DNA of 39,036 nt from an uncultured Pelagibacteraceae bacterium (GTDB taxonomy: Bacteria; Pseudomonadota; Alphaproteobacteria; Pelagibacterales; Pelagibacteraceae), in contig CACNFY010000010.1 of the NCBI GenBank assembly GCA_902619925.1, positions 1-39,036 on the forward strand, read 5' to 3'. The translations under genes and the position numbers were made by a program. The notes under the pieces were generated by a model. That model was given only the letters and a program-made list of their open reading frames with translations, was not told the DNA's origin and did no database searches. Below are positions 16,411 to 17,673 of this stretch, in pieces (the stretch's first letter is position 1; each line of letters opens with the position of its first letter).

Positions 16411-16566
16411 ACGGAAGAGACTACTTAATTGTAGCGCCGAAGGAGCAACCACCCCGGAAACTCTCAGGCAAAAGGACCGTAAATATTAACTCTGGAAAGA
16501 GAATGTTTCTCGCCGACGGAGTAAATCTCTCAGGCTCATAGACAGAGGGGGTAAGAGTTAATATTT
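16411..16566 (+). ncRNA. Tandem glycine riboswitch (two aptamers) in the gcvT leader
   Basis: Aptamer I (16411-16480) has P1 ACGG (16411-16414) with CCGT (16477-16480), the GGAAGAG entry, the conserved GCCGAAGGAGCAACC core, and CTCTCAGGCAAAAGGACCG. Aptamer II (16490-16547) has P1 CTCTG (16490-16494) with CAGAG (16543-16547), and the core GCCGACGGAGTAAATCTCTC followed by AGGCTCATAGAC. A 9-base A/T linker joins them, as in known tandem glycine riboswitches. There is no U-tract hairpin after aptamer II, so control is probably at translation initiation of gcvT. Bases 16480-16492 are perfectly complementary to 16555-16567, just at the gcvT start. The riboswitch class is secure; the switching mechanism is inferred. 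Confidence 0.95.
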
Positions 16567-17673
16567 ATGAATAAAACAGCTTTATACAATTTACACAAAA
16601 AATTTAATGCAAAATTTGTATCTTTTGCTGGCTATGAAATGCCTATCCAATATAAAGATGGAATAATTGCTGAGCATAATCTAACGAGAGAAAAGTCAGG
16701 GATATTTGATGTATCACATATGGGTCAATTATTTATTGCGGGTGATGTTAAATTAACAGACAAACTTCAAGATATATTTCCAACAGACTTAAAAAATTTA
16801 TCGGTGAATCAGAGTAAATACTCGTTTTTAATGAATGAAAATGCAGGAATTCACGACGATTTAATTATTACAAAAATTTCTAAGGGATATATGATAATTC
16901 TTAATGCTGCATGTAAAGAAAAAGATTTTGAAATAATCAAATCTAAATTAGGTGAAGATTTTAAAATATCATTAAGTAAAGACCTATCTCTTGTTGCCGT
17001 ACAAGGTCCTGATTCAAAAGATTTAATTGAAAAAATTATTCCAGGTGTAAATAAACTAAAATTTATGTTTGGTGGAGATTTTAAATTTAATTCAAATAAT
17101 ATTTATGTAACAAGATCGGGATACACAGGAGAAGATGGTTTTGAGATTTCGATAAATAATAATGATGTGGTTAAATTTGTTGAGACATTAATCAGTTTAG
17201 GATCTAATCTTATAGGCCTTGGTGCCAGAGATACATTAAGGCTTGAAGCAGGGTTGTGTTTATACGGTAATGACATTGACGAAAATACTAGTCCATTAGA
17301 AGCAAATTTAAAATGGGCAATTTCAAAAAATCGAATCAACAGTAATTTTCCAGGAGCAAAACGAATTCAGAGACAAATTAATGAAGGTGTCACAAAACTA
17401 AGAGTTGGCATTAAACCTGATGGTAAAATTATAGCTCGAGAATCAACAAAAATATTTGATGAAAATAATAATCAAATAGGAAAAATTACTAGTGGTTCTT
17501 TTGGCCCGAGTGTAAAAAGTCCTATTGCAATGGGTTATGTAAATAATACATATACAAAAGAAAATACAAAAATATTTTTAGAAATAAGAGGAAAAAAAGT
17601 TTCGGCGAGTGTTTGCAAGCTCCCGTTTTATAAAAAAAACTATTACAAAGGAGATATAAATGTCCGAAGTTAA
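16567..17673 (+). CDS. gcvT: Aminomethyltransferase (glycine cleavage T protein)
   Basis: T protein transfers the methylene group from H-protein-bound aminomethyl to tetrahydrofolate and releases ammonia. Family motifs are NLTREKSGIFDVSHMGQL, SRSGYTGEDGFEIS-like (here VTRSGYTGEDGFEIS), GLGARDTLRLEAGLCLYGNDI and SPLEANLKWAI. At 368 residues the length is normal. The start lies directly behind the tandem glycine riboswitch. The only upstream purine core at a good distance is GAG at 16555-16557, which is part of the complementary element. The 3' end overlaps gcvH by 14 bases. Confidence 0.96.
   Translation: MNKTALYNLHKKFNAKFVSFAGYEMPIQYKDGIIAEHNLTREKSGIFDVSHMGQLFIAGDVKLTDKLQDIFPTDLKNLSVNQSKYSFLMNENAGIHDDLIITKISKGYMIILNAACKEKDFEIIKSKLGEDFKISLSKDLSLVAVQGPDSKDLIEKIIPGVNKLKFMFGGDFKFNSNNIYVTRSGYTGEDGFEISINNNDVVKFVETLISLGSNLIGLGARDTLRLEAGLCLYGNDIDENTSPLEANLKWAISKNRINSNFPGAKRIQRQINEGVTKLRVGIKPDGKIIARESTKIFDENNNQIGKITSGSFGPSVKSPIAMGYVNNTYTKENTKIFLEIRGKKVSASVCKLPFYKKNYYKGDINVRS

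What the first reader, a model, noticed from the sequence alone, without database searches (positions are those of the whole stretch)
16480..16567. Perfect 13-base complement linking the glycine riboswitch to the gcvT start
Bases 16480-16492 (TAAATATTAACTC) are exactly complementary to 16555-16567 (GAGTTAATATTTA). The second arm includes the only plausible ribosome-binding core (GAG 16555-16557) and the A of the gcvT ATG. The first arm includes the linker and the CTC that also forms the 5' strand of aptamer II P1 (CTCTG with CAGAG 16543-16547). The two helices therefore compete for CTC. Glycine binding, by stabilising P1, would free the gcvT start, giving a translational ON switch with no terminator. 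Alternatively the outer ten pairs could form alongside P1 and hide the AUG. The complementarity is seen; the direction of switching is inferred.
Basis: partly seen in the sequence, partly recalled or inferred. Interest (0 to 1): 0.75.

Follow-up and report, generated by a model that had tools for sequence, protein, structure and literature searches.

The report
SAR11 riboswitch linker hides start codon
In SAR11, very abundant ocean bacteria, the short RNA stretch between the two glycine sensors upstream of the glycine-breakdown gene gcvT is complementary to that gene's start site, and matched changes in relatives show that this pairing has been kept by evolution, so glycine binding likely opens the start site and would switch on translation.

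Summary
The complementarity is real and longer than reported: 14 Watson-Crick pairs, 16 consecutive pairs with a G.U and a C-G (16478-16493 with 16554-16569), covering the SD-like GAG and the whole AUG; 0 of 5000 shuffles reach 12. The element is a tandem glycine riboswitch before gcvT-gcvH-gcvP in a SAR11 genome. In 180 gcvT loci (109 distinct arm combinations) 106 of 109 form an unbroken helix and 100 of 109 reach the start codon. Six of 11 pairs show changes on both sides; 0 of 500 shuffles reach the covariation score. The glcB riboswitch has the same layout in another sequence, with one persistent mismatch and little predicted effect. Folding puts the start site in the helix without ligand; closing P1-II lowers its mean opening cost from 7.7 to 3.7 kcal/mol. 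In the window P1-I frees the AUG and P1-II the GAG. A glycine-ON translational switch is the best explanation; its direction is inferred. Riboswitch class and SAR11 occurrences are already in print; I found no description of this platform, but the 2009 SAR11 paper was not available.

The parts
16398..16403 (+). TATAAG, -10-like hexamer with TG at 16395-16396; would put the transcript start near 16410, directly at P1 of aptamer I
   Evidence: read from the sequence; a loose -10-like pattern in 99 of 137 distinct SAR11 leaders, 70 at -15 to -13, but the place nearest the expected one was taken and no shuffle control was run; the strict promoter scan found none. Inferred.
16402..16489 (+). glycine riboswitch aptamer I (Rfam RF00504 hit)
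   Evidence: 63.8 bits, gathering score 32
16482..16555 (+). glycine riboswitch aptamer II (Rfam RF00504 hit)
   Evidence: 47.2 bits, over the cut-off in the search of the own genome; not listed by the scan of the window
16411..16414 (+). P1-I 5' strand ACGG, pairs with 16477-16480 CCGU
   Evidence: pairs checked; Rfam alignment
16477..16480 (+). P1-I 3' strand; 16478-16480 are shared with the anti-start arm
16478..16493 (+). anti-start arm: last bases of P1-I, the inter-aptamer linker 16480-16489 and CTCT of P1-II
   Evidence: 16 consecutive pairs with 16554-16569 in the MFE fold; covariation in relatives
16490..16494 (+). P1-II 5' strand CTCTG
   Evidence: sequence
16543..16547 (+). P1-II 3' strand CAGAG
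   Evidence: sequence
16554..16569 (+). start-site arm AGAGTTAATATTTATG: SD-like GAG through the AUG of gcvT
16567..17673 (+). gcvT, aminomethyltransferase
   Evidence: PF01571 1.6e-78, PF08669 1.5e-21
17660..18040 (+). gcvH, next gene downstream
   Evidence: PF01597 2.6e-43
18040..20904 (+). gcvP, next gene downstream
   Evidence: PF02347 1.2e-187

Best explanation
This is a tandem glycine riboswitch whose expression platform is likely the linker between its two aptamers: the linker and the first bases of aptamer II are complementary to the gcvT start site, are predicted to hide it when glycine is scarce, and glycine binding would release it and switch translation on. Shown: the complementarity, its conservation and its compensatory changes in relatives, and the same layout in another sequence (with one mismatch) before glcB. 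Predicted: the ligand-free RNA folds into the arm helix; closing P1-II (and in this clade P1-I) takes back the shared bases and lowers the cost of opening the start site. Inferred: that glycine does this closing, the ON direction, regulation at translation rather than transcription, and that gcvH and gcvP follow as one operon.
For: Exact arms, 16 consecutive pairs including AUG; 0 of 5000 shuffles >=12. 215 loci examined, the window included, 214 parsed (L102 is cut at its 5' side): 180 gcvT loci = 109 distinct arm combinations, 106 with an unbroken helix, 95 of 109 with the arm starting 8 nt before the start codon, 100 of 109 reaching it. On 135 GcvT rows, 1463 of 1485 cells of pairs 1-11 are standard (98.5%) against 33-47% when slid by 1-3 nt. 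On 49 distinct arm types: 96.5% paired, 6 of 11 pairs changed on both sides, 38 such cells against 9.3 shuffled, covariation score 0.283 against 0.108, 0 of 500 shuffles. On the tree, pairs 6-10 together change the compensatory way in about 6 independent comparisons, the opposite way in 0, not at all on the other side in about 2. Own arms bind better than swapped arms: -12.6 against -9.8 kcal/mol, swapped weaker in 7581 of 10490. Permuted 3' regions reach >=10 pairs in 54 of 5450, the real ones in 104 of 109. The start codon moves (4 nt further from GAG in the window's clade) and the linker changes with it. glcB: 27 of 30 distinct combinations match over 10 positions up to its ATG with one mismatch. 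Folding: mean cost of opening the start site 7.7 free, 3.7 with P1-II; drop >=2 kcal/mol in 114 of 131 gcvT sequences. Window: 8.75 free, 3.48 with P1-II, 2.33 with both P1. No terminator.
Against: With P1-II alone enforced the outer ten pairs of the window still form at 0.82-0.88, and on average only 34% of the start-site bases are unpaired. For glcB the predicted effect is weak: 3 of 30 drop by >=2 kcal/mol, mean P(linker:start site) 0.41, one central pair is nonstandard in 29 of 30 combinations, and swapped glcB arms are weaker in only 348 of 776 cases. Pairs 4 and 5 never vary and pairs 1-3 show no double change, so the contested CTC/GAG part has no covariation support; GAG could be kept as a ribosome-binding core. 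Under a stricter coding of pair 8 half of one comparison goes the opposite way, and no single pair has enough events for a significant sign test. Exceptions: L143 fails in gcvT, L140 and L142 are broken by a mismatch, L145, L152 and L177 lack the helix in glcB, L155 and L179 lose the innermost pair. The predicted nascent P1-II of the window is only 0.29. The whole fold is not exceptional (z -1.74). Glycine binding and expression were not measured.
Confidence: 0.8

Rival explanations
1. Static or OFF model: the outer eight to ten linker pairs form on top of P1-II, so glycine-bound RNA also hides the AUG; the arm would damp translation constantly or make glycine an OFF signal.
For: With P1-II enforced the outer ten pairs keep 0.82-0.88 probability in the window; mean unpaired start site given P1-II is only 0.34. 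The covarying pairs are the outer ones.
Against: Opening the start site gets cheaper by about 4 kcal/mol on average once P1-II forms, and with both P1 helices the window AUG is 0.79 unpaired. An OFF switch would repress glycine cleavage when glycine is abundant, against the ON logic reported for Neisseria gcvT (passages of PMC13104608).
Confidence: 0.12
2. No switch: CATATTAACTC is kept as linker/aptamer sequence and GAGTTAATATG as a ribosome-binding site, and the match is a by-product.
For: AACTC or CACTC before aptamer II also occurs in other alphaproteobacteria; pairs 4-5 are invariant.
Against: Pairs 6-11 change on both sides together, beyond shuffles and slides in the covariation score; the glcB arm has another sequence with the same layout; in other alphaproteobacteria the longest linker:start-site match is at chance level (mean 6.2 against 5.8 permuted, 25 of 30 loci usable).
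Confidence: 0.04
3. Transcriptional control: the arm helix acts on RNA polymerase or Rho rather than on the ribosome.
For: Riboswitch effects on Rho-dependent termination are cited in PMC13104608 (passages); not tested here.
Against: No terminator-like site; the helix ends on the start codon in 100 of 109 combinations, which transcriptional control does not need.
Confidence: 0.04

Closest known systems
Tandem glycine riboswitch of Neisseria gonorrhoeae gcvT (PMC13104608; passages read)
   Same: Two aptamers, one platform, gcvT, translational ON with glycine, no terminator predicted, aptamer II bases cover the initiation region without ligand.
   Different: There P3a, P3 and P1 bases of aptamer II pair with bases just upstream of the AUG; here the inter-aptamer linker plus the 5' strand of P1-II pairs with GAG through the AUG itself. 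[quoted passage not shown] here it covaries across genera.
Glycine riboswitches of 'Candidatus Pelagibacter ubique' before gcvT and glcB (Meyer 2009, PMC2704228, passages read; Tripp 2009, PMC2621071, not held, known from its title in reference lists and from recall)
   Same: Same riboswitch class, same two genes, same bacterial group; the Tripp title calls it glycine-activated.
   Different: The passages seen list the elements and describe no platform. I could not read Tripp 2009, which may draw one.
Vibrio cholerae tandem glycine riboswitch with leader-linker kink-turn (passages of PMC12060979)
   Same: Two aptamers joined by a linker that takes part in base pairing.
   Different: There the linker pairs with the 5' leader; here the transcript probably starts at P1-I (inferred) and the linker pairs with the start site downstream. 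No consistent leader:linker pairing was found.
Bacillus subtilis gcvT tandem glycine riboswitch (search listing and abstract start of PMC5666159; mechanism recalled)
   Same: Glycine-ON control of gcvT by two aptamers and one platform (recalled).
   Different: Transcription terminator platform (recalled); no terminator here.

Membership tests
Glycine riboswitch (RF00504), tandem type | conserved aptamer core above the Rfam gathering score | tested here: met
   63.8 bits and 47.2 bits, cut-off 32
Glycine riboswitch (RF00504), tandem type | two adjacent aptamers with a short linker and one platform | tested here: met
   hits 16402-16489 and 16482-16555, gcvT at 16567
Glycine riboswitch (RF00504), tandem type | upstream of a glycine metabolism gene | tested here: met
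   gcvT, gcvH, gcvP by Pfam
Glycine riboswitch (RF00504), tandem type | binds glycine | not testable with these tools
   needs probing or calorimetry
Glycine riboswitch (RF00504), tandem type | leader-linker kink-turn, called conserved in PMC12060979 (passages) | tested here: inconclusive
   leader:linker duplex -3.37 against -2.37 kcal/mol shuffled for 119 distinct gcvT leaders, -1.18 against -2.57 for 19 glcB leaders; 165 of 214 loci could be used
Translational expression platform (anti-initiation helix) | initiation region paired in a helix exclusive with an aptamer helix | tested here: met
   by sequence and predicted fold only: shared bases CTCT (P1-II) and CG (P1-I); folds with and without constraints
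Translational expression platform (anti-initiation helix) | helix maintained by compensatory change | tested here: met
   6 of 11 pairs, 0 of 500 shuffles for the covariation score; none of the six lies in the contested CTC/GAG part
Translational expression platform (anti-initiation helix) | start codon within 15 nt of the aptamer core (classification rule in PMC2258182, passages) | tested here: not met
   19 nt lie between P1-II (16547) and the ATG (16567); the rule classes by distance only
Translational expression platform (anti-initiation helix) | glycine changes translation | not tested
   needs an experiment
Transcription terminator platform | GC-rich stem followed by a T run | tested here: not met
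   0 sites in 16200-16800

The most novel reading that the evidence does not exclude
In this SAR11 clade one RNA helix reads both aptamers at once: its outer end is borrowed from P1 of aptamer I and covers the AUG, its inner end is borrowed from P1 of aptamer II and covers the ribosome-binding GAG, so only glycine in both aptamers clears the whole start site. The inter-aptamer linker, elsewhere used for a kink-turn with the leader, has become a physical AND gate for translation, and both SAR11 glycine riboswitches (gcvT and glcB) run on this linker-as-platform design.
Probability: 0.35. Interest if true: 0.68.

Novelty: new variant of a known kind. Interest (0 to 1): 0.5.

Why it matters
[quoted passage not shown] If true, one short linker does the work of a whole expression platform in a streamlined genome, explains how gcvT could respond to glycine without a terminator, and gives a test bed for how two aptamers are read out by one helix. 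The helix is short, AU-rich and differs between clades, so arm swaps are ready-made experiments.

Tried and rejected
Relatives of GcvT in viral contigs: none. Terminator and strict promoter scan of the leader: none. Leader-linker kink-turn as the linker's partner: no consistent signal. Same layout in other alphaproteobacteria: 28 of 30 loci parsed, 25 of them with a candidate gcvT start; the longest linker:start-site match is at chance level (mean 6.2, permuted 5.8), and one locus, L264, reaches 10 pairs where chance gives about 0.4 of 25. Several outgroup loci have more than one candidate start, first candidates lying 18-88 nt after aptamer II. The fold as a whole is not exceptionally stable (z = -1.74, 9 of 200 shuffles fold as well), so the case rests on covariation, not on energy. 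RNA thermometer reading of the AU-rich helix: considered, not tested. The parses were too brittle and were replaced by that; one search stopped with an error and was redone; one search used only 3 rows by mistake and was redone; the long output was cut and its tree counts were repeated.

Full report
What is there. The window holds a tandem glycine riboswitch (RF00504: 16402-16489, 63.8 bits; 16482-16555, 47.2 bits) directly before gcvT (16567), gcvH and gcvP. The 80 GcvT relatives kept by the search of named genomes, up to 97% identical, bear SAR11 names, mostly Pelagibacteraceae. The own genome held (89% complete) has this one tandem only.

The observation. Bases 16480-16492 and 16555-16567 are exact complements. 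The match is longer than stated: 14 Watson-Crick pairs, 16 consecutive pairs with G16479.U16568 and C16478-G16569 in the predicted fold. It covers GAG 16555-16557 and the whole AUG. It takes CTCT from the 5' strand of P1-II and C16478, G16479 from the 3' strand of P1-I. None of 5000 dinucleotide shuffles reached 12 (best 11, once), and the next best of 32 gene starts of the window is 10.

Relatives. 80 GcvT loci came from named genomes, the best 80 of 300 by protein similarity; 54 loci came with RF00504 matches of the genus and order searches and 80 more were fetched by me from places. With the window that makes 215, of which 214 were parsed with landmarks inside the aptamers only (L102 lacks enough 5' sequence). 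They are 180 gcvT and 34 glcB loci, 109 and 30 distinct arm combinations. For gcvT, 106 of 109 combinations form an unbroken helix of 8-14 pairs between linker and start region, 95 of 109 begin 8 nt before the start codon and 100 of 109 reach it. The sequences differ by clade: CATATTAACTC/GAGTTAATATG is commonest in the own genus code g1, CGTAATAACTC/GAGTTATTATG in g5, related forms in the two g6 rows, AATAAACTC/GAGTTTATT in g2, ATTATATAACTC/GAGTTATATAAT in g3, ATTAAAACTC/GAGTTTTAAT in one of four g4 rows. In the window's clade the ATG sits 4 nt further from GAG than usual and the linker has changed to match. Ten sequences (window, L033-L041) have a helix that runs into CCG of P1-I. In L097, L099, L121 and L007-L009 the ATG lies beyond the helix.

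Statistics. On 135 GcvT rows 1463 of 1485 cells in pairs 1-11 are standard; slid by 1-3 nt, 33-47% are. On the 49 distinct arm types: 96.5% paired, 6 of 11 pairs with changes on both sides, 38 double-changed cells against 9.3 in shuffles, covariation score 0.283 against 0.108, reached by 0 of 500 shuffles; the count of pairs with double changes alone was reached by 6 of 500. The tool warns that shuffles ignore relatedness. On the GcvT tree, independent comparisons at pairs 6-10 together go the compensatory way about 6 times, the other way 0 times, and about 2 times the partner does not change; a stricter coding of pair 8 gives half a comparison the other way, and single pairs have too few events for a significant test. 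Own gcvT linkers bind their own start region better than swapped ones: -12.6 against -9.8 kcal/mol, weaker in 7581 of 10490 swaps; for glcB -8.65 against -7.88, weaker in 348 of 776. Permuted start regions reach 10 pairs or more in 54 of 5450 trials, the real ones in 104 of 109.

The paralogue. The glycine riboswitch before glcB (malate synthase by Pfam in L004 and L145) has the linker CATAACACTC and the start AGTGCTATG: 27 of 30 combinations match over 10 positions up to the ATG with one mismatch; that position is nonstandard in 29 of 30. Across the two genes the layout is the same and the sequence is not: gcvT linkers against glcB starts give -4.8 kcal/mol, glcB linkers against gcvT starts -4.7. 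L145, L152 and L177 lack it. Within glcB the helix hardly varies, so it adds little covariation, and the predicted effect of P1-II is weak (opening cost 5.1 to 4.5; 3 of 30 drop by 2 or more).

How it likely works. Without ligand the window folds into the arm helix (MFE -43.0; arm pairs 0.99; P1-II about 0). Forming P1-II costs 5.6 kcal/mol and lowers the cost of opening 16555-16569 from 8.75 to 3.48; P1-I and P1-II together lower it to 2.33. P1-I alone frees the AUG (unpaired 0.02 to 0.61), P1-II alone frees GAG (0.00 to 0.87), both together leave AUG 0.79 unpaired, although GAG then falls to 0.24 through other pairings with an opening cost of 1.44. Over 131 distinct gcvT sequences the opening cost falls from 7.7 to 3.7 with P1-II, by 2 or more in 114; with both P1 in 89 of 104, 40 further sequences of both genes having been dropped because P1-I was not found by the script; for glcB 3 of 17. 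Glycine binding at both aptamers would have to supply about 5-6 kcal/mol, plausible for micromolar affinities (affinities recalled, not measured here). Hence a glycine-ON translational switch, which fits the catabolic role of gcvT. Direction and level of control are inferred.

Limits. With P1-II alone the outer ten pairs persist (0.82-0.88). The contested CTC/GAG pairs show no double changes. The predicted nascent P1-II in the window is 0.29, although the mean over 104 gcvT sequences is 0.70; for 17 glcB sequences it is 0.22. Exceptions: L143 fails; L140 and L142 are interrupted; L105 keeps 8 pairs; L155 and L179 lose the innermost pair.

Compared with what is known. The aptamers are ordinary RF00504 members. 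In print, as far as I could read: the SAR11 elements before gcvT and glcB (passages of PMC2704228, PMC2211319, PMC5069720) and a translational ON tandem riboswitch of Neisseria gcvT with another pairing (passages of PMC13104608). The listings of my searches and the passages I opened showed no description of a SAR11 or linker-based start-codon platform; most listed papers were seen as listings only, and the 2009 SAR11 paper (PMC2621071) is not held and may contain one. In other alphaproteobacteria no such helix is seen beyond chance (25 of 30 loci usable), with one possible exception, L264. SAR11 glycine riboswitch reads begin at P1 or up to 15 nt upstream (PMC5069720, passages), which agrees with the -10-like motif here and leaves little leader for a kink-turn.

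Verdict. A new variant of a known kind: a tandem glycine riboswitch that likely uses its inter-aptamer linker as anti-start strand.

Noticed in passing
L003-L006, L015, L018-L021, L032 and other glcB loci: The glcB start helix carries one central nonstandard pair (mostly A opposite C, else A or G) in 29 of 30 distinct combinations, as if kept weak on purpose.
   Followed up: partly
16395-16403 and the same place in relatives: A TG-TATAAG-like -10 motif sits just upstream of aptamer I, so the mRNA probably starts at P1-I with almost no leader.
   Followed up: partly
genomes: 73 of 197 Pelagibacterales genomes had no RF00504 match, among them one 98% complete; the glycine riboswitch may be lost in part of SAR11, or the stricter filters missed it.
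   Followed up: no
L145 and L152 (genus code g5): Tandem glycine riboswitches without the linker:start helix; the gene after the one in L145 is malate synthase by Pfam. How they would act is unclear.
   Followed up: partly
L264 (an alphaproteobacterium outside SAR11): The linker and a candidate start site can form 10 pairs, the only such case of 25 outgroup loci; chance would give about 0.4.
   Followed up: no
L058, L059, L081, L169, L180, L196, L215: Aptamer I has an unusual P2 region and GGGAGAC or GGGAGAA in place of GGGAGAG; ligand binding there may differ.
   Followed up: no
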